Positions 42,739 through 51,137 of a stretch of DNA of 64,000 nucleotides are shown here, piece by piece. The first letter of the stretch is position 1, and each line of letters opens with the position of its first letter. This DNA is from Aureimonas fodinaquatilis (GTDB lineage Bacteria; Pseudomonadota; Alphaproteobacteria; Rhizobiales; Rhizobiaceae). The translations under genes and the position numbers were made by a program. The stretch lies in assembly GCF_008369445.1 (NCBI RefSeq), contig NZ_VTWH01000001.1, positions 372,001 to 436,000 on the forward strand. Direction: 5' to 3'. The notes under the pieces are model-generated. The model did not search any database. It had not been told where the DNA came from and saw nothing but the letters and a program-made list of their open reading frames with translations.

Positions 42739-42876
42739 ACCCGTCGCAAGCCTGTTCATTACCGATCATCAGATTTTCGCTGTCACAAAAGTGAAGCGCG
42801 ACAGCTCTACTGTGTGCGCCAGTGCCGCTTGTTGAGAATTTTTGAGCGGCAGACAAACAGCAGGATTTCGATCGCT

Positions 42877-43953
42877 ATGGTCACGATCGCCCTTAACGGG
42901 GTTACGAAAGATTTCGCGAAAAAGCGCGTGCTCGACGATGTGTCGCTTCGTGTGGAAAATGGCGAGTTCATAGCCGTGCTCGGGCCGTCCGGCTGCGGTA
43001 AAACCACGATGCTGCGGCTGATTGCCGGTTTTGAGCAGATGAAAGCCGGTACGATACGGTTTGACAACGACATCATTGCTTCCCCTGAGCGCAGTCTGCC
43101 GCCGGAAAAGCGCAATGTCGGCATCGTGTTTCAAAACTACGCCTTGTGGCCGCATATGACGGTTGAGCAAAATGTCGGCTATGCGCTGAAAATAGCCGGT
43201 GTTTCTTCTGATGAGCGGCGCAGGCGCAGCCTTGAAGCCCTGGCCACAGTTGCCATGGAGAATTTTGCTGATCGGCTGCCGGCGGATCTTTCCGGTGGCC
43301 AGCGCCAGCGCGTGGCACTGGCCCGCTGCCTTGCAGCCAATCCTACGGTGATGCTGCTGGACGAACCTCTCGCCAATCTTGACGTGCATCTGCGTGCGTC
43401 CATGGAAAGCGAGTTCGCCGATTTTCATCGTCGCACCCGGGCAACGATGATTTACATTACCCACGACCAGTCAGAAGCGATGGCGCTGGCAGACCGGATT
43501 GCGGTGATGGACGGCGGGCGAGTGATGCAGGTTGGCCGCCCGCATGAGTTGTACAGCCAGCCGCAGAATGAAATGGTGGCGCGCTTTATCGGCAACGGCT
43601 TTGTGCTTCCTGTGACCAACATCCAGCGTGGCGCCAGAGATGGCACGGTTGATGTGGATGTGTTTGGCCACCGCAGTGTTGTGCGCGCCCGCAAAGATCA
43701 ATCAATGGTGGCCCGTGCCAGCCTTGGCCTGCACCCCGGTGACTTGAAACTGGCGGGCACCGCCAATGACGGATTTGCTGCGCAGGTTGAACGCACAACC
43801 TATCGCGGCGGCCATATGCAGGTGCATTTCCGCCCTCAGCAGGCTCCGCACCTTACCCTGAGCCTGCATGCATCTCACGATCGGCCGGTCGCAGCCGGTG
43901 ACACGATTTCAGTTTGCGTCGGGGATGGCTGGGTCATTCCCGAAGCAGCTTGA
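42877..43953 (+). CDS. ABC transporter ATP-binding protein, Fe3+/spermidine class
   Basis: 358 aa from ATG 42877. Walker A GPSGCGKTT (36-44), signature LSGGQRQRVALARCL, Walker B VMLLDEPLANLD and switch His in YITHDQSEAMALADR. The C-terminal third is the TOBE domain (LGLHPGDLKLAG, then RTTYRGGHMQV) typical of PotA/FbpC ATPases. First gene of the ABC-hydrolase-phosphatase operon. Confidence 0.93.
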   Translation: MVTIALNGVTKDFAKKRVLDDVSLRVENGEFIAVLGPSGCGKTTMLRLIAGFEQMKAGTIRFDNDIIASPERSLPPEKRNVGIVFQNYALWPHMTVEQNVGYALKIAGVSSDERRRRSLEALATVAMENFADRLPADLSGGQRQRVALARCLAANPTVMLLDEPLANLDVHLRASMESEFADFHRRTRATMIYITHDQSEAMALADRIAVMDGGRVMQVGRPHELYSQPQNEMVARFIGNGFVLPVTNIQRGARDGTVDVDVFGHRSVVRARKDQSMVARASLGLHPGDLKLAGTANDGFAAQVERTTYRGGHMQVHFRPQQAPHLTLSLHASHDRPVAAGDTISVCVGDGWVIPEAA

Positions 43954-43990
43954 TTTTCCTCTCCCACTCCCCCTTTTCAAGGAACACTTC

Positions 43991-44953
43991 ATGCGCCTTT
44001 TAACAACCCTTGCGCTCACCCTCATGGTGGGCACCGCCAACGCTCAAACGCTGACGCTTTATACTTCGCAGTCGCCGGAAATAGCCCAGCAGACAGTTGA
44101 TGCCTTTCAGGCCAAATATCCGGACATCAAGGTTGAATGGACCCGCAATGGCACCAGCCAGCTGATGAATGTCATCCGCGCTGAAATTGCCGCCGGTGAC
44201 CTGAAACCGGACGTGCTGCTGGTTGCCGACACCATCAATCTGGGTCAGCTCAAATCCGAAGGCCGCCTGCTGGCTTATCCTGAAGCCAAGGTGGACGGCT
44301 ATGACGCCGGCACCTTTGACAAGGACAAAACGTTCTTCGGCACCAAGATCATCTCTACCGGCATTGCCTACAACACGCAGACCGCGCAGCCTGTTGAAAC
44401 CTGGAACGAGTTGCTGGTCGAAGACAACAAGGGCCAGATCGCAGTGCCAAGCCCGCTCTATTCGGGTGCGGCGCTGAACCATCTGCACAGCGTGATTGAC
44501 GTGGATGGAATTGGCTGGGATTTCTACAAAAAACTGGCTGAACTGGATATCGCGCCCGATGGCGGCAATGGCCCGGCACTGAAGGCAGTGGCCAGTGGCC
44601 TTGCCAAATACGGCATTATTGCCGATGCCGACGTTATTCGCGCCAAGGCCAGCGGTTCACCGGTTGACCTGATCTTCCCGAAGGATGGTGTGTCCTTCAT
44701 CACCGAGCCGGTCGCGATTTTGTCCACTGCCAAGGAGCCGGAAGCGGCCAAGCGTTTTGTGGACTTCCTGTTGTCCCGGGAAGGACAGGAACTTGTTGCT
44801 CAGCAGGGCAATCTGCCAATTGATGCTTCGGTAACGCCGCCAGAAGGCTTCCCGACACTTTCCGACATCAAGCTTCTGCCGATGGATGCCGATAAGGCTG
44901 TAGAGAGCGATCAGGAAGTGCGCGAGCAATTCACAGAAGTGTTCGGCGGCTGA
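43991..44953 (+). CDS. ABC substrate-binding protein, iron/phosphonate class
   Basis: 320 aa from ATG 43991; the frame is open further upstream only through the ATPase tail. Signal peptide MRLLTTLALTLMVGTANAQ, then LTLYTSQSPEIAQQTVDAFQAKYPDIKVEW, the opening of FbpA/PhnS-like type 2 binding proteins, and RFVDFLLSREGQELVAQQG. The tyrosine pair used by ferric binding proteins (YYxxR) is not obvious, which argues against iron. The neighbouring hydrolase and phosphatase suggest an organophosphate or related ligand. Confidence 0.9.
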   Translation: MRLLTTLALTLMVGTANAQTLTLYTSQSPEIAQQTVDAFQAKYPDIKVEWTRNGTSQLMNVIRAEIAAGDLKPDVLLVADTINLGQLKSEGRLLAYPEAKVDGYDAGTFDKDKTFFGTKIISTGIAYNTQTAQPVETWNELLVEDNKGQIAVPSPLYSGAALNHLHSVIDVDGIGWDFYKKLAELDIAPDGGNGPALKAVASGLAKYGIIADADVIRAKASGSPVDLIFPKDGVSFITEPVAILSTAKEPEAAKRFVDFLLSREGQELVAQQGNLPIDASVTPPEGFPTLSDIKLLPMDADKAVESDQEVREQFTEVFGG

Positions 44954-44956
44954 TTG

Positions 44957-46690
44957 ATGGCTGATATTGCGGCAGCAATGCCGGGGGAACGCAGGCCGGT
45001 GCCTGCGTTCCGTCTTGGCCCTGAAACCTTGGTGCTTGGCATTCTCGCGCTGTTTGTGGCGACAATTTCCCTTGCGCCATTGGGGCGTCTGGCGTTGACC
45101 GCAATTGCGCCGGAAGGCGTTCTGGACCTTGAAAGAGCGTGGAGCGTGCTGGCAAGGCCGCGCGTTTTCACCGCAGCTATGAACTCGCTTTATGTTGCGC
45201 TTGCATCAACACTTTTTGCCGTGGTGCTTGGCAGCATTGCCGCGCTTCTGACCGTGCACAGCAACATGCGGTTCAAGGCGGCGTGGGTGTTTGGCTTTGT
45301 CCTGCCGCTGTTGATACCACCACAGGTTACCGCGCTTGCCTGGGTGCAGGCCTTTTCGCCATCCAGTCCGGTGCTGGGTTTTTTCGGCCTTGCGCTGACG
45401 CCTGGTACGCGGCATCCGCTTTATTCAGCCGGTGGCATTATCTTTCTTCTCGGCATTTACAACGCGCCGCTGGTGTTTCTTACCATGCGTGCGGCACTTC
45501 GGCGTCTGCCTGCCAATCTTTCCGAAGCGGCCCGGGCATCGGGCGCAGGCAACTTTCAGCTCATCTTCACCATTTTGCTGCCGCTGGCCCGGTCCGGTCT
45601 GTACGCCGGGGCGGCGATCGCCTTTGTTTCGGCTATCGGCAATTTCGGCATTCAGGCTATGTTGGGCATTCCAGCCCGATTTCCGACACTGATCACCCTG
45701 ATTTATCAGCAACTCAACAGCTATGGTCCGGCAAGCCTTTCCGACATGGCTTCCTTGTCGCTGCTGCTTTCGCTCATGACCGTTCTTGCGCTTGGCCTCA
45801 GTGGGTGGCTTGGCGGGCGTGGCGATGTGCGGGTGGAAGAAGGTGGAAGGGCGGTTGAAATCAATCTTGGTCGCGGGCGCCCTTTGGTTGAGGCTGGTGC
45901 CTGGCTCTATCTGGCTGCCACGCTGCTTTTGCCGGTTTCCGCCTTGGTTGCAACGTCATTGGTCAGAGGTTTCGGACAGGAGCTTGGCTGGGAAACGCTG
46001 ACGCTGACCAACTATGCCAACGCGCTGTTGTATCATGCCTCTGTTCGCGACGCCTTCACCACCAGTCTGGTTCTGACAGTTTCGGCGGTGGTGCTGCTGA
46101 GCGCAATTTCACTGGTTCTTGCTTATTTCATCAGTTGGAGAAAAAGCCTGTTCGTCCGGCTGATCCAGCTTGCCGCTGAGCTTTCCTATGTGCTGCCGGG
46201 ACTTATTCTCGGCGTTGCCATGATTTTGTTTTTCCTGCGCCCGCTGCCGCTTTTGGGGTTCAGCATCTACGGCACGGTGTGGATTATTCTGGCTGCCTAC
46301 CTTGCCAATTTTCTGGCATTGGCGCTGCGCCCGATGCTGGGCGGCTTTGCGCAGATTGACCGGTCGATGGAGGATGCCGCGCGCGTGGCCGGGGCGGGCT
46401 TTTTCCAGCGCATGCGCGATATCATTCTGCCAATGCTGGCGCCTGCGGTCATTGCCGGTGGCATAATCGTCTTCATGTCGGCGCTGAATGAAATTCAGGT
46501 ATCAATCCTGCTTGTCTCTTCCAGCGCGCGAACCATTGGTCCGATGATCATCTTTCTTGAAGAGGGGGGATCATCCACTCTGGCAGCAGCCGTTGGCTGC
46601 CTGATGATCCTGATTGTTCTGGTGCTGATGTGCACTGCATCGCTGTTTGCCGGCCGTTTGCCGAAGGGGGCACTGCCATGGCGCGATTGA
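44957..46690 (+). CDS. ABC transporter permease, fused double domain
   Basis: 577 aa with about 12 membrane helices. Both permease halves carry the EAA loop that docks the ATPase: LSEAARASGAGNFQLIFTILLP in the first and MEDAARVAGAGFFQRMRDIILP in the second. Such fused permeases are typical of FbpB-type importers. ATG 44957 is three bases after a TTG that could also initiate. The 3' end overlaps the hydrolase gene by 13 bases. Confidence 0.92.
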   Translation: MADIAAAMPGERRPVPAFRLGPETLVLGILALFVATISLAPLGRLALTAIAPEGVLDLERAWSVLARPRVFTAAMNSLYVALASTLFAVVLGSIAALLTVHSNMRFKAAWVFGFVLPLLIPPQVTALAWVQAFSPSSPVLGFFGLALTPGTRHPLYSAGGIIFLLGIYNAPLVFLTMRAALRRLPANLSEAARASGAGNFQLIFTILLPLARSGLYAGAAIAFVSAIGNFGIQAMLGIPARFPTLITLIYQQLNSYGPASLSDMASLSLLLSLMTVLALGLSGWLGGRGDVRVEEGGRAVEINLGRGRPLVEAGAWLYLAATLLLPVSALVATSLVRGFGQELGWETLTLTNYANALLYHASVRDAFTTSLVLTVSAVVLLSAISLVLAYFISWRKSLFVRLIQLAAELSYVLPGLILGVAMILFFLRPLPLLGFSIYGTVWIILAAYLANFLALALRPMLGGFAQIDRSMEDAARVAGAGFFQRMRDIILPMLAPAVIAGGIIVFMSALNEIQVSILLVSSSARTIGPMIIFLEEGGSSTLAAAVGCLMILIVLVLMCTASLFAGRLPKGALPWRD

Positions 46691-47772
46691 CGGCGATCAG
46701 TGGGCTGGGTGGCAAGCTTCCGGCGGCATTTCTGCTTGAAGCCCATGGCAAGCGGCTGCTTCTGGATCTCGGCGAGGGGCCGGAGCCAGGCATCTTTCCC
46801 GATCTGAGCCAGATCGGGACTGTGGATGCAATCTGCCTGTCTCACTCGCATCTGGACCATACCGGTGCCTTGCACCTCGCGTCTGAGATCGGCAATCCAC
46901 CGATCTATGCCACGGCCATGACATTTCTGGGAATTGGCCTTGATGTGGCGACAGAGCGGCGCTGCCGCGTCATTCCGGACTTCGGGCATGCCGAGATAGA
47001 GGGCGTGCCGGTTATTCTTGGCCGGTGCGGCCATGCGCCGGGCGGCGTCTGGTTTCACTTTCCGGTTGATGGCGGCATCCTCTACACCGGAGACTGGAGT
47101 GTGGAATCGCTGCTTTTGCCGTTTGATACACCGCCGCGAGCAGCCCTGATGGTCACTGATGCCTCTTATGGCGACCGCGATATCAGCCTGTCTGATCAGA
47201 TCAGTGTCATCATCAGGGCAGCGAGAACCGGTTGTGTGTTACCGGTTCCATCTGGTGGACGCGGGCCGGAAATGGCGCTTGCGCTGTTTGCTGCGGGGCT
47301 TGAAACCCGGGTTTGCCCGCAGGTGAGGCGTGAGATTGAGACTTTGATTGCCAGGCCTGGCTTGATTGCGGATGCCAGCAAGGAAAGGCTGGCCGCTTAT
47401 CTGCGCAGCCAGAGCGATGGCGTGCAGGCCTGGCATCCATCCGACATTATCATTGCGGCAGAAGCAAATGGCGAGGCAGGAGTTTCTGCGCAGCTCGTTG
47501 GCAGGATTGACGATGGATTTCGCTTCATCTTCTCCAGCCATGTGCCGCACGGAACCCCGGCCGCGAGGCTGATTGCGCAAAAGCGTGCAGAATGGCTGCC
47601 ATGGAATGTGCATCCGCGCCGCCATGATGTGCTTCATCTGGCAGATGTCACGAACGCACGGGATGTTATACCGGTGTTTGTCAAACCGGATGACATGCCA
47701 TTTCTGGCGGAAAAACTGGGAAACAGGCTGCGGCTGGAAAAAACCACCGAGTTGTTGCCTGCAGAGGCATGA
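46678..47772 (+). CDS. Metallo-beta-lactamase-fold hydrolase, beta-CASP-like
   Basis: 364 aa from ATG 46678. Zinc motif SHSHLDH gives His 56, His 58, Asp 60 and His 61; His 119 (CGHAPGG), Asp 139 (YTGDWS). TDASYGDRD (160-168) is close to the ESTYGDR element of RNA-processing beta-CASP nucleases, and HVPHGTPAA late in the protein could be the last His. Such proteins cleave phosphodiesters. Unlike true RNases it is encoded inside an importer operon, so a small phosphodiester substrate is possible. Function inferred. Confidence 0.85.
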   Translation: MARLTAISGLGGKLPAAFLLEAHGKRLLLDLGEGPEPGIFPDLSQIGTVDAICLSHSHLDHTGALHLASEIGNPPIYATAMTFLGIGLDVATERRCRVIPDFGHAEIEGVPVILGRCGHAPGGVWFHFPVDGGILYTGDWSVESLLLPFDTPPRAALMVTDASYGDRDISLSDQISVIIRAARTGCVLPVPSGGRGPEMALALFAAGLETRVCPQVRREIETLIARPGLIADASKERLAAYLRSQSDGVQAWHPSDIIIAAEANGEAGVSAQLVGRIDDGFRFIFSSHVPHGTPAARLIAQKRAEWLPWNVHPRRHDVLHLADVTNARDVIPVFVKPDDMPFLAEKLGNRLRLEKTTELLPAEA

Positions 47773-48387
47773 ATGAATGGACATCAGAACATGACGGCAC
47801 AGCACCAACACCAAGAGCTGACGGAAGAACAGGAGGACCGTCTTGCGGTTCTGCTTCCCGTGATTGATGGAACCGGACCACACAATGCCCGGCTGTTCAT
47901 CGGCAACAAGGTGGCAGCCGAAAATGCCGCTCTGCTTTTGCAACACGACATCACGTCAACAATGAATCTGGCAGTCAATATCGAGATTGCTCCATTGACC
48001 CTGACCGATGGAACACATGTCCGGCGAACCCATATCGGCCTGATCGACGGTTCGGGAAATACACCACACCATCTTCTGTCTGCCGTTATGGCAATATTTG
48101 GCATCGTCGCACAGGACAGCCCAGGCAAAGCGCATTATCCACCACATCGCCGCGGCAATATTCTGGTGCATTGTCGTGGCGGGCGCAGCCGGTCAGCAAC
48201 CGTGATTGCGCTTTATCTGCACTTGGCCCACCCTTCGCGTTTTGCAACATTCGACAGTGCCATTGCCCATATACGCAATGTGCGGGGACTTGATGCAACG
48301 CAGCCGCAACCGGCCATGCTGGCTTTGGTGGAAGAAGCGTTGGCGTTCATTCAAATCAATCGCCTGCGTTGCTCGCAATCCAGCTAA
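47773..48387 (+). CDS. Dual-specificity/tyrosine phosphatase-like protein
   Basis: 204 aa. The phosphatase P-loop HCRGGRSRS (133-141) gives nucleophile Cys 134 and Arg 140, with a possible general acid Asp 92 in GLIDGSGN. GNKVAAENAALLLQHDITSTMNLA at the front matches dual-specificity phosphatases. It starts one base after the hydrolase stop, so it should be co-translated. It could dephosphorylate the imported compound after the hydrolase, or a protein; context favours the former. Confidence 0.88.
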   Translation: MNGHQNMTAQHQHQELTEEQEDRLAVLLPVIDGTGPHNARLFIGNKVAAENAALLLQHDITSTMNLAVNIEIAPLTLTDGTHVRRTHIGLIDGSGNTPHHLLSAVMAIFGIVAQDSPGKAHYPPHRRGNILVHCRGGRSRSATVIALYLHLAHPSRFATFDSAIAHIRNVRGLDATQPQPAMLALVEEALAFIQINRLRCSQSS

Positions 48388-48494: not shown

Positions 48495-51137
48495 GTGTTG
48501 CGATCACGTAATGGTCTTTTTGTCCTATGTGCTGTTTTTCTAGCGTATCCGTCTGAAAAAGCTTATGCGGCATGCGTCGTTGTTCCCGCAGGTATTTTAC
48601 CCCTTCAGCTTGTCTGCGATCCCGGCGCTGGGGAAACTGTCAGTATCACGCCGGGAAATGGGGTGTTTATCCGGTCAGGAGATGTCACCTCCATCAGTCA
48701 GGGCAGTAACCCCGCTTATTTCGAAATGACGGGCGGAACGCTTCAAAACCTGAATCAGGGCGGCGGTCTCGACATTTTCAGAATGATTGATGGTCACCTC
48801 ACAGGAACTGCAACCGCGGGCGATTTCGGTATTCAGACAGGAGGCAGAATTGGCGCGGTCAATTTGCAGGCTGCGGATAACGGTTATCATATGCTGGGCG
48901 GCACAATAGACCGGTTTTTATATGCCCAGACCGGGGATGACTATTTTCAGCTTGAAGGCGGCAGTATCGGCTTTGATCCGGCAGGTGGCACTGCCGGTGC
49001 GGGCAACAGCATCAATTCCGGCGCCGGTAACGACAAGATTGTTCTGAACGGAACGCTTGTCGAGGGCAACATTGTCATGTTCAACCCCAACAATCCGGGT
49101 GCCGAAACTGACTTTCTTGATCTCAGGTCAGGGGCCATTCAGGGCCGCGTCCTTCTGGGCGATGGCAGCGATTTTGTTTTGGTCGGACCCGATTTCGCGC
49201 CGCAGTTTTCCAGTGGTGTTCAGGGCGGAATTGACGCGGGCGATGGCCTTTCGAGCACTGACGGCTGGATTGATGTTTTCGCTACAAATGGGTGGTCCGG
49301 TCAGCTCACAGGGTCGTTGATCACCAATTTTGAGACTATGGTTATTTCTGCCGGCGCGGTCAGTTTCAGCGACAATGCTCTGGCAGTGGGTGGCGATGCC
49401 GGCACCGGTGTCTTTGTTGTGGATGGGGCCGAACTTGATTTCGGGCCTGCTTTCACTCTGGATGGAAACCTGAATCTGGGTGGAAGTCCGATTGTCAATT
49501 TCGATGCCGCAACCTACGGCTTTACTGCCAATCCAAACCGGTTCTATACAATCGACACATCGCTCTATGATCTGCGCGGTCCTGCAGATTTTGCCTTCTC
49601 CAGCGCGGGCGGCACATTGCTTGCCGGTGGCCTCGGGGCCTACCGCATTAATGGAGATGTTTTAAATGCCGGAACAATTGATCTTCAGGGAGGCGGTCCT
49701 GGCACCCGACTGGTTGTTGCAGGTGATTACACCGGCGCCAATGGCACTCTGCTGATCAATACAGTTTTGGGGGACGACAGATCTGTAACCGATCAACTCG
49801 TTGTTGAGGGCGAGACGGCTGGGAACACGCTTTTATACGTCAACAATATCGGCGGCACCGGAGCGCAAACCACGCAAGGCATCAAAGTGGTTGATGTTCT
49901 GGGGCCAAACTCGGCGGGCAGTTTCTCGCTGATGGGTGACAGGTCTCTCAATGGCCAGCAAGTTCTGATTGCGGGTGCTTATTACTACAGTTTGAACCAA
50001 GGGAGCATTTCCGAACCGGGCGACGGTGACTGGTATCTGCAATCGCTGACAAGGGCGGTCAGTCCAACAGATCCTGCATCACCCACGAACCCCGTGGTTC
50101 CATTCTATCAGGCGGCGGTGCCGCTGGCAGAAGCCTATCCGAGTGTGCTGTTGCGTTTGCAGGGACTTCCAACACTGCAACAGCGTATGGGAAACCGGTT
50201 CTGGAGCGGTGCTGGCAACGGCATTGCTGCGCAGGGTTCGGACCTGGTCGATGAAGCCGTTTCACCAGATCAAATGCCAATATCAGAAGGGCGGGGCATC
50301 TGGGCGCAGGTAGAGGGAACCCATATCCGCATTGCGCCAGAAAATTCCGCTTCGCTCGGCAACTACACCAATGACGTGTTTCAATTCAAGGCAGGCATTG
50401 ATCTGCCCGTTCATGAAACCTCGACAGGATTGCTGGTAGGCGGCATCAATGCTCAACTTGACCGGGCATCCACGGATGTGACGTCCGATTACGGCAATGG
50501 CTCAATCTCGACGAACGGGCTGGGTTTCGGCGGTACGTTGACCTGGTATGGGGCAGGCGGACAATATGTTGATGGTCAGGCCAGAGTTGCCTGGTATGAG
50601 AGTGACCTGGAATCCGACGAACTCGGGCTCATTGCTTCGGGCAATCATGGTCTGGGCTATGCGTTTTCGCTGGAAGCTGGCAGGCGGCTTGAGATGCGCT
50701 CCGGTCTGGCGCTGACCCCACAGGTGCAACTGACCTATTCAGCCATTGAGTTCGACAGTTTCAACCAGATCGTTAACGGTCGATCGGCTGCCAGCATATC
50801 CTTGCGGGATGGAGAAAGCCTCACTGGCAGGATAGGGCTTGCGCTCGACAGTGAAGCGTCATGGCAGTCAGACAACGGCACCATGTCCCGCAGGCACATC
50901 TATGGCATCGCAAATCTGTACTACGAGTTTCTCGATGGAACTCTGGTGGATGTTTCCGGTGAAAATTTTGCGACGGAAAATGAACGGCTTTGGGGTGGAG
51001 TGGGCCTTGGCGGATCGTACAACTGGAACGATGACCGTTACTCACTTTACGGCGAAGGCCTGGTCAGCACTGCATTGGACAACTTCGGCGACAGTTACGC
51101 GCTGAAGGGCACCGTTGGCTTTCGTGCAAACTGGTAA
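48495..51137 (+). CDS. Autotransporter with beta-barrel domain
   Basis: 880 aa. GTG 48495 (AAAGGA upstream) or TTG 48498 starts a signal peptide ending AYAA (about 25). Residues about 40-570 are a Gly/Asn/Asp-rich beta-helical passenger with repeated GGxL/GNI strands; a Pro/Thr hinge (PTDPASPTNPV, about 523) precedes the linker, and about 600-880 form the 12-strand autotransporter barrel, ending FRANW. The barrel exports the passenger to the cell surface. No protease or adhesin motif was recognised. Confidence 0.9.
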   Translation: MLRSRNGLFVLCAVFLAYPSEKAYAACVVVPAGILPLQLVCDPGAGETVSITPGNGVFIRSGDVTSISQGSNPAYFEMTGGTLQNLNQGGGLDIFRMIDGHLTGTATAGDFGIQTGGRIGAVNLQAADNGYHMLGGTIDRFLYAQTGDDYFQLEGGSIGFDPAGGTAGAGNSINSGAGNDKIVLNGTLVEGNIVMFNPNNPGAETDFLDLRSGAIQGRVLLGDGSDFVLVGPDFAPQFSSGVQGGIDAGDGLSSTDGWIDVFATNGWSGQLTGSLITNFETMVISAGAVSFSDNALAVGGDAGTGVFVVDGAELDFGPAFTLDGNLNLGGSPIVNFDAATYGFTANPNRFYTIDTSLYDLRGPADFAFSSAGGTLLAGGLGAYRINGDVLNAGTIDLQGGGPGTRLVVAGDYTGANGTLLINTVLGDDRSVTDQLVVEGETAGNTLLYVNNIGGTGAQTTQGIKVVDVLGPNSAGSFSLMGDRSLNGQQVLIAGAYYYSLNQGSISEPGDGDWYLQSLTRAVSPTDPASPTNPVVPFYQAAVPLAEAYPSVLLRLQGLPTLQQRMGNRFWSGAGNGIAAQGSDLVDEAVSPDQMPISEGRGIWAQVEGTHIRIAPENSASLGNYTNDVFQFKAGIDLPVHETSTGLLVGGINAQLDRASTDVTSDYGNGSISTNGLGFGGTLTWYGAGGQYVDGQARVAWYESDLESDELGLIASGNHGLGYAFSLEAGRRLEMRSGLALTPQVQLTYSAIEFDSFNQIVNGRSAASISLRDGESLTGRIGLALDSEASWQSDNGTMSRRHIYGIANLYYEFLDGTLVDVSGENFATENERLWGGVGLGGSYNWNDDRYSLYGEGLVSTALDNFGDSYALKGTVGFRANW

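What the first reader, a model, noticed from the sequence alone, without database searches (positions are those of the whole stretch)
42877..48387. Importer operon with beta-CASP-like hydrolase and dual-specificity phosphatase
An FbpABC-like ABC importer (ATPase, binding protein, fused permease) overlaps a metallo-hydrolase carrying beta-CASP-like SHSHLDH and ASYGDRD motifs, followed one base later by a phosphatase with an intact HCRGGRSRS loop. Import, phosphodiester cleavage and dephosphorylation in one coupled transcript suggests an undescribed route for an organophosphate, possibly a nucleotide-like or glycerophosphodiester compound.
Basis: partly seen in the sequence, partly recalled or inferred. 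Interest (0 to 1): 0.6.

Follow-up and report, generated by a model that had tools for sequence, protein, structure and literature searches.

The report
Phosphate-regulated import operon for organic phosphates
This bacterium carries a five-gene unit, recurring in related bacteria, that probably imports a phosphorus-containing compound when phosphate is scarce, cuts it with an enzyme built like RNA-cutting enzymes, and strips off the phosphate; the compound itself is still unknown.

Summary
In detail: an ABC importer (ATPase, binding protein, fused permease), a metallo-hydrolase and a DSP-type phosphatase lie in one tightly packed run at 42877-48387. It is a real, recurrent unit. At 56 other loci with the hydrolase, 50 have the whole importer beside it and 45 a phosphatase directly after it. 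That phosphatase comes from four unrelated families: DSP (17), SurE (12), histidine phosphatase and/or PNKP-type HAD (16). Of 34 related importer loci without the hydrolase, 1 has one in the operon. The hydrolase is a compact beta-CASP enzyme (pLDDT 93.5; Z 36-37 to CPSF73 and TTHA0252). The binding protein is closest to glucose-6-phosphate binders; most of the phosphate site is kept, the sugar-ring site is not. A Pho-box-like site lies upstream (42780-42797); such sites are enriched at these operons (30 of 57 at p<=0.05; 10 of 275 control upstreams) and equally at hydrolase-less relatives (24 of 34), so phosphate control belongs to the importer family and argues against iron. Best reading: import, phosphodiester cleavage and dephosphorylation of an organophosphate. 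A nucleotide-like substrate fits the enzyme families but is not shown. No enzymatic step was tested.

The parts
42780..42797 (+). Pho-box-like site CTGTCACAAAAGTGAAGC, 97 bases before the ATPase start
   Evidence: score 12, p 0.02 against 100 shuffles; same site with 0-1 mismatch in 7 of 56 other loci, all of the DSP type (of these 7, L025, L091 and L102 do not stand out singly, p 0.23-0.37)
42808..42813 (+). TACTGT, possible -10 element 10 bases after the box
   Evidence: same 10-base spacing to TATTGT in L091 and TAATGT in L025; no transcription start mapped
42877..43953 (+). ABC importer ATPase with TOBE_2 domain
43991..44953 (+). substrate-binding protein (signal peptide read by eye), AfuA-like
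44957..46690 (+). fused permease, two BPD_transp_1 stretches
46678..47772 (+). compact beta-CASP-type metallo-hydrolase, no signal peptide by eye
47773..48387 (+). DSP-type phosphatase with HCRGGRSRS loop (alternative start 47791)

Best explanation
A Pho-regulated import-and-dephosphorylation operon. Under phosphate shortage PhoB turns it on (inferred from the box). The AfuA-like binding protein catches a compound through its phosphate in the periplasm, and the ATPase and fused permease bring it in (inferred from families). In the cytoplasm the beta-CASP-type metallo-hydrolase opens a phosphodiester bond, and the phosphatase then releases inorganic phosphate from the monoester (inferred from families and from the swapping of phosphatase types). 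The substrate most compatible with the enzyme families is nucleotide-like (a short oligonucleotide, cyclic nucleotide or other nucleotidyl diester); a sugar or glycerol phosphodiester is the main alternative. Shown here: gene content, conservation, phosphatase swapping, predicted fold, box enrichment. Not shown: any ligand, any activity, PhoB dependence.
For: Importer complete beside the hydrolase at 50 of 56 loci and a phosphatase of one of four families directly after the hydrolase at 45 of 56 (17 DSP, 12 SurE, 16 histidine phosphatase and/or PNKP-type HAD), on the same strand and starting within 100 bases; control 1 of 34 hydrolase-less importer loci. Two loci show only the hydrolase-phosphatase pair in the DNA read (L003 DSP, L114 SurE). 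Catalytic signatures kept: SurE 12 of 12, HAD 10 of 10, HPF 13 of 14, DSP HCxxGxxR 16 of 17, the 17th keeping C and R. Hydrolase: metal motifs and motifs A and B invariant in 22 of 22; profile best hit human CPSF73 E 2e-29; AlphaFold pLDDT 93.5, the 50 Foldseek rows shown all beta-CASP, Z 36.7 and 36.4 to CPSF73 and TTHA0252. Binding protein: best folds AfuA and VcA0625; T55, S158, G159 at AfuA phosphate positions invariant in 20 of 20. Pho boxes: 16 of 57 hydrolase loci at p<=0.01 and 30 of 57 at p<=0.05; 12 and 24 of 34 hydrolase-less importers; 1 and 10 of 275 control upstreams. In the own genome the consensus with one mismatch hits 6 places (0 for the reversed pattern), one of them before a PstS-like frame. 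Nucleotide lean: SurE models are 5'/3'-nucleotidases, HAD_PNKP is a polynucleotide phosphatase domain, the HPF is nearest alpha-ribazole phosphatase, the window DSP passes PTP-SAK (28.4 against 27 bits).
Against: No activity or ligand is known. Loci are related by descent, so counts are not independent; partners follow the trees in large part. Pho boxes are as frequent at hydrolase-less importers, so they speak for the importer's cargo, not for the hydrolase's role. 11 of 56 loci have no phosphatase of the four families (one is a contig end). Motif C, a zinc ligand in RNA-type beta-CASP enzymes, is His only in 3 of 22. DSPc and PTP-SAK were below their cut-offs in L003, and in L028 DSPc was below and PTP-SAK not listed. 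The NCBIfam matches shown for SurE, HPF and the importer proteins all lie below their curated cut-offs. A plain type II binding protein may be small for a nucleotide dimer. The window's own box has a weak second half-site (GTGAAGC for CTGTCAT).
Confidence: 0.72

Rival explanations
1. Same pathway logic but the substrate is a sugar or glycerol phosphodiester, as in the agrocinopine (Acc) route: the hydrolase frees a sugar phosphate and the phosphatase frees the sugar. (A variant of the best explanation, so the two confidences overlap.)
For: Binding protein closest to hexose-6-phosphate binders. Adjacent regulators are of sugar- or sugar-phosphate-sensing families: LacI (RbsR best model), SorC (Bacillus DeoR best model), DeoR/GlpR (representatives only). 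The Acc system has the same plan (passages of PMC4526662).
Against: AfuA ring residues His205 and Glu229 have no counterpart in 20 of 20, Asp206 aligns with Asp in 4 of 20. In the clusters of neighbours that I looked at, no sugar catabolism gene recurs beside the block, but most clusters were not identified. beta-CASP enzymes are known for DNA and RNA processing (PMC3095777 passages).
Confidence: 0.3
2. A phosphonate accessory module: the importer brings a phosphonate and the hydrolase does the job of PhnP, the metallo-beta-lactamase-fold cyclic phosphodiesterase of the C-P lyase pathway (PhnP recalled).
For: Nearest NCBIfam names are PhnS2 and PhnU2, with PhnT2 among the top three. In L034 the block follows an amidohydrolase (PhnM-like) and a guanylate-kinase-like gene (PhnN-like, just under the Pfam cut-off); L036 and L037 have the same clusters. 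In these three genomes PhnJ lies about 12 kb upstream on the same contig and strand.
Against: All three NCBIfam scores are far below cut-off (114 of 393, 316 of 458, 151 of 593 bits). The window's genome has no PhnJ; 40 of 56 hydrolase genomes have it, like the family background of 136 of 199. PhnP lacks a beta-CASP cap (recalled). The phosphatases have no obvious place in that pathway.
Confidence: 0.1
3. A ferric iron importer with two unrelated enzymes behind it by chance.
For: Annotated 'iron ABC transporter permease' in public records; FbpA proteins are among the fold matches.
Against: The Tyr-Tyr pair of the ferric-binding protein 1y4t has no counterpart in 20 of 20 rows. Pho boxes upstream. 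Hydrolase and importer together at 50 of 56 loci.
Confidence: 0.04
4. An RNA repair, defence or signalling unit in which the hydrolase cuts RNA and the phosphatase trims ends or dephosphorylates proteins, with the importer serving another purpose.
For: beta-CASP fold; PTP-SAK and HAD_SAK_2 are named after Swiss Army Knife (RNA repair) proteins (HAD_SAK_2 slightly below cut-off).
Against: Importer and hydrolase stay together across four partner types and several gene orders. No PADLOC model matches binding protein, permease, hydrolase or phosphatase. Pho control fits nutrition.
Confidence: 0.05

Closest known systems
AfuABC hexose-6-phosphate importer (AfuA, VcA0625) and P5PA vitamin B6 phosphate binder
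   Same: Best sequence and fold matches of the binding protein (P5PA third by sequence); Ser37, Ser148 and Gly149 around the bound phosphate align with T55, S158, G159
   Different: Thr150 is Ala or Gly; His205 and Glu229 of AfuA replaced in all 20 rows; hydrolase and phosphatase in the operon
Agrocinopine catabolism (AccABCDEFG) of Agrobacterium
   Same: Plan: binding protein and ABC importer, cytoplasmic phosphodiesterase AccF, putative phosphatase AccG (PMC4526662 passages)
   Different: The two sets of proteins were not compared by sequence here; Acc is controlled by the repressor AccR, this by Pho-box-like sites
beta-CASP nucleases (TTHA0252, CPSF73, archaeal CPSF/FttA, RNase J)
   Same: Fold over the full length (Z 30-37 in the rows shown), motifs 1-4, A and B
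   Different: Motif A to B spacing 151 residues against 202 in MTH1203; motif C not His in 19 of 22; only 364 residues, with no further domain; sits in an importer operon
PhnS2T2U2 putative 2-aminoethylphosphonate importer
   Same: Nearest NCBIfam names of binding protein and permease, the permease matched over its whole length
   Different: Scores far below the equivalog cut-offs

Membership tests
beta-CASP metallo-hydrolases | MBL motifs 1-4 (D30, H56xH58xD60H61, H119, D139) | tested here: met
   22 of 22 rows
beta-CASP metallo-hydrolases | motif A acid and motif B histidine | tested here: met
   D161 and H312 in 22 of 22, aligned with the STYG and SAH stretches of CPSF73 (that these are motifs A and B is recalled)
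beta-CASP metallo-hydrolases | motif C histidine (RNA type) or valine (DNA type) | tested here: inconclusive
   position 333: Val in the window, His only in the three SurE-type rows, otherwise mostly Ala; the alignment is loose there
beta-CASP metallo-hydrolases | MBL core plus inserted cap | tested here: met
   model pLDDT 93.5; Z 36.7, 3.2 A over 359 residues to 9nh6_H; cap shorter
beta-CASP metallo-hydrolases | nuclease activity | not testable with these tools
   needs an assay
AfuABC hexose-phosphate importers | His205, Asp206, Glu229 ring-binding residues | tested here: not met
   His205 and Glu229 absent in 20 of 20; Asp at the Asp206 column in 4 of 20, the window among them (numbering offset of two between paper and chain is my inference)
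AfuABC hexose-phosphate importers | phosphate-binding Ser37, Ser148, Gly149, Thr150 | tested here: inconclusive
   T55 (as Thr37 in P5PA), S158, G159 invariant in 20 of 20; Thr150 is Ala in 19, Gly in 1
FbpABC ferric importers | adjacent iron-binding tyrosines | tested here: not met
   columns aligned with Tyr-Tyr of 1y4t: no Tyr-Tyr in 20 of 20; one Tyr in 7 rows (that this pair binds iron is recalled)
Pho regulon | Pho box upstream | tested here: met
   window p 0.02; 30 of 57 loci at p<=0.05 against 10 of 275 controls; second half-site of the window weak
Pho regulon | PhoB-dependent induction | not testable with these tools
   needs expression data
PhnS2T2U2 phosphonate importer | NCBIfam equivalog cut-offs | tested here: not met
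   114.2 of 392.75, 316.3 of 457.7, 150.6 of 593.25 bits
DSP phosphatases | C(X)5R loop | tested here: met
   HCRGGRSR in 9 of 9 aligned rows; in the wider set HCxxGxxR 16 of 17, the 17th with NCRGGRSR
Agrocinopine Acc system | AccF/AccG homologues | not tested
   no sequence comparison made

The most novel reading that the evidence does not exclude
A branch of the beta-CASP nucleases, until now known for processing RNA and DNA, has become a nutrient enzyme: a Pho-controlled ABC importer takes up intact nucleotide-like phosphodiesters (cyclic nucleotides or short oligonucleotides), the compact beta-CASP enzyme cuts them inside the cell, and any of four unrelated phosphatases finishes the job. 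This would be a bacterial route for eating nucleic-acid fragments without periplasmic dephosphorylation.
Probability: 0.3. Interest if true: 0.82.

Novelty: new variant of a known kind. Interest (0 to 1): 0.62.

Why it matters
Organic phosphorus is a main reserve in soil and sea, and many importers annotated as iron or polyamine carriers have unknown cargo. Here an importer family found across Proteobacteria carries Pho boxes, and one part of it a fixed hydrolase with interchangeable phosphatases, so its cargo class can be named and tested. If the beta-CASP enzyme works on imported small molecules, a family known for nucleic-acid processing has a metabolic branch. It would also correct the 'iron ABC transporter' label on these genes.

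Tried and rejected
Iron import: rejected on the missing Tyr pair and the Pho boxes. Defence: PADLOC matched only the ATPase. C-P lyase dependence: PhnJ in 40 of 56 hydrolase genomes against 136 of 199 in the family, so no association, and the window's genome has none. PstS positive control by TIGR00975: no match in the own genome, although a PstS-like frame, judged by eye, follows a consensus box in L198. Literature: I saw only listings and starts of abstracts; some returned no paper, no title listed by the others describes this operon; the library is open-access only. My first tally lacked histidine phosphatases in L039, L094, L096 and L101, probably through its composition and overlap filters; the profile search replaced it. 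Loci without the four phosphatases are L032-L038, L055, L056, L058 (contig end) and L093; nine neighbours at five of them (L033, L034, L035, L038, L055) were scanned in Pfam and none was a phosphatase, and a tenth stretch (L032) matched nothing; other neighbours were not scanned. The hydrolase tree left out L058 (fragment). My notes hold two early readings that I corrected: G194 against AfuA Gly185 (on recount N193), and the phosphatase counts, which stood. A genome-contig scan with the single protein found only one relative; its patterns reach close relatives only.
Full report
WHAT IS THERE. The five genes lie on the + strand, packed closely: ATPase 42877-43953, binding protein 43991-44953, fused permease 44957-46690, hydrolase 46678-47772, phosphatase 47773-48387. 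The permease and hydrolase frames overlap by 13 bases and the phosphatase frame starts at the base after the hydrolase stop. Pfam confirms the families. In NCBIfam no match shown reaches its curated cut-off; the nearest names are PhnS2 and PhnU2 for binding protein and permease, and PotA, UgpC and PhnT2 for the ATPase. The window is G000:C1:372001-436000 of a 3.93 Mb genome that is rich in such ATPases.

HOW WIDESPREAD. With the hydrolase as query, matches (own genome counted each time) were found in 19 of 297 genomes of the order, 3 of 21 of the genus, 8 of 385 of the class, 17 of 398 of the phylum and 19 of 199 of the family; the first two searches used the single protein at E<=1e-15, the others the alignment at 1e-25. 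Further matches are Pseudovibrio exalbescens and 57 plasmid records, 44 of them Phaeobacter, Paracoccus and Azospirillum. The distribution is patchy, even within the genus.

THE UNIT IS REAL AND THE PHOSPHATASE IS SWAPPED. I fetched 8 to 15 kb around the hydrolase in 55 genomes and added the Pseudovibrio locus: 56 loci besides the window. The whole importer lies within 7 kb on the same strand in 50 of 56, binding protein plus permease in 52. Directly after the hydrolase, on the same strand and starting within 100 bases, stands a phosphatase in 45 of 56: DSP in 17, SurE in 12, histidine phosphatase (HPF) and/or PNKP-type HAD in 16 (Pfam identities of representatives). Gene orders differ: ATP-SBP-PERM-MBL-DSP 16, SBP-PERM-ATP-MBL-SurE 11, SBP-PERM-ATP-MBL-HPF-HAD 8, -HAD 2, -HPF 1, ATP-MBL-HPF-SBP-PERM 5, bare MBL-DSP 1, bare MBL-SurE 1; the other 11 have none of the four (one is a contig end). 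Of seven named plasmid loci read, five show these orders: Phaeobacter inhibens, Enterobacter hormaechei, Pannonibacter, Haematobacter and Paracoccus. Two do not: Azospirillum thermophilum has binding protein, split permease and hydrolase but no ATPase or phosphatase listed beside them, and Falsirhodobacter has the hydrolase without importer or phosphatase. Catalytic signatures: SurE 12 of 12, HAD 10 of 10, HPF 13 of 14, DSP 16 of 17; the odd DSP keeps Cys and Arg.

CONTROL. The importer family is wider than the unit: 45 of 131 family genomes hold the binding protein at E<=1e-60, 11 of them beside the hydrolase. Of the 34 loci without it, 1 has a phosphatase of the four families in the operon (L161, SurE); a weak HPF match in L167 lies on the other strand from the importer. 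So the phosphatase goes with the hydrolase, not with the importer as such. Trees of binding protein (87 rows) and hydrolase (56 rows) show partner types clustered in clades, with HPF-type partners in two separate hydrolase clades. The counts therefore are not independent events.

THE HYDROLASE. The family alignment has D30, H56, H58, D60, H61, H119, D139, D161 and H312 invariant in 22 of 22. The profile finds human CPSF73 first, E 2e-29, over nearly the full length. The AlphaFold model (pLDDT 93.5) has only beta-CASP proteins in the 50 Foldseek rows shown and Z 36.7 to CPSF73 in 9nh6 and 36.4 to TTHA0252 in 3ie1. Motif A to B is 151 residues, against 202 in MTH1203 (PMC3095777, passages). Motif C, which that paper gives as His in RNA-type and Val in DNA-type enzymes, is Val in the window, mostly Ala elsewhere, and His in the three SurE-type rows of the alignment.

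THE BINDING PROTEIN. Profile and fold searches put AfuA and VcA0625 first, with P5PA third by sequence. Passages of PMC4546632 and PMC8427247 name the residues around phosphate and ring. On the HMMER alignment Ser37, Ser148 and Gly149 fall on T55, S158 and G159, invariant in 20 of 20; Thr150 falls on Ala (19) or Gly (1). His205 and Glu229 have no counterpart in any row, Asp206 falls on Asp in 4 of 20, the window among them. So a phosphate site is plausible, a hexose-6-phosphate site is not. The Tyr-Tyr of ferric-binding protein 1y4t has no counterpart in 20 of 20.

PHOSPHATE CONTROL. The box CTGTCACAAAAGTGAAGC lies at 42780-42797, with TACTGT ten bases on. Seven of 56 other loci, all with DSP, carry this site with 0-1 mismatch. 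Scored against the 7-4-7 consensus quoted in PMC3131613 (passage) with 100 dinucleotide shuffles each, 16 of 57 hydrolase loci reach p<=0.01 and 30 of 57 p<=0.05, the window at 0.02; hydrolase-less importers 12 and 24 of 34. Not every conserved site stands out alone: L025, L091 and L102 have p 0.23 to 0.37. The control, upstreams of other genes in the loci, gives 1 and 10 of 275; some of these upstreams lie inside operons. In the own genome the consensus with one mismatch hits 6 places, the reversed pattern none; by eye one hit precedes a PstS-like frame and one a pyrophosphatase-like frame, the other four were not identified. Relatedness inflates the counts, but the contrast with the control is large. 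Since hydrolase-less importers have the boxes too, this speaks for the importer's cargo rather than for the hydrolase.

WHAT THE SUBSTRATE MIGHT BE. Three leads, none decisive. (1) Enzyme families lean to nucleotides: beta-CASP, SurE (5'/3'-nucleotidase models), HAD_PNKP, HPF nearest alpha-ribazole phosphatase, and the window DSP just over the PTP-SAK cut-off, though two other DSPs do not reach it. (2) Regulators lean to sugars or pentoses: by clusters LacI at 11 loci (RbsR the best model), SorC at 9 (Bacillus DeoR the best model), DeoR/GlpR at 11, each identified on one or two representatives. (3) In L034 the block follows the tail of a C-P lyase operon, and L036 and L037 share these gene clusters and have PhnJ upstream on the same strand, so phosphorus is the common theme, but PhnJ is not associated overall. 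Six hydrolase-less importer loci carry a shared gene downstream of the ATPase, not always next to it, that Pfam calls Exo_endo_phos in the two tested.

VERDICT. A Pho-regulated organophosphate import, cleavage and dephosphorylation operon is the best reading (0.72). It works like the agrocinopine route (PMC4526662, passages) but probably with other parts. The hydrolase is a beta-CASP-type protein by fold and most motifs; its activity is unknown. Nucleotide-like cargo is my most novel reading (0.3).

Noticed in passing
L175, L179, L184, L185, L188, L189: Hydrolase-less relatives of the importer with a shared gene downstream of the ATPase, Exo_endo_phos in Pfam (run on L175 and L184 only): perhaps another phosphodiesterase in the same role.
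   Followed up: partly
L034, L036, L037; L190: The importer-hydrolase block sits right after PhnM-like and PhnN-like genes of a C-P lyase operon that, by eye, already has its own PhnCDE-like transporter.
   Followed up: partly
hydrolase position 333, rows L041, L042, L044: Motif C histidine of RNA-type beta-CASP enzymes is kept only in the SurE-partnered rows of the alignment.
   Followed up: partly
L025 and L091, just after the -10 element: TGTGCACACG-type palindrome, a possible LacI operator; a LacI gene lies beside it in these loci but not in the window.
   Followed up: no
L114 and L166 (one genome): Hydrolase-SurE pair without importer, while an importer of another branch lies elsewhere in the same genome.
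   Followed up: no
window 48495-51137: Autotransporter (Pfam Autotransporter, AC_1) on the same strand 107 bases after the phosphatase; no match to it in the relatives' loci compared.
   Followed up: no
own genome, L198 and L199: Pho-box consensus hits before a PstS-like and a periplasmic pyrophosphatase-like frame (read by eye); TIGR00975 did not match the PstS-like one.
   Followed up: partly
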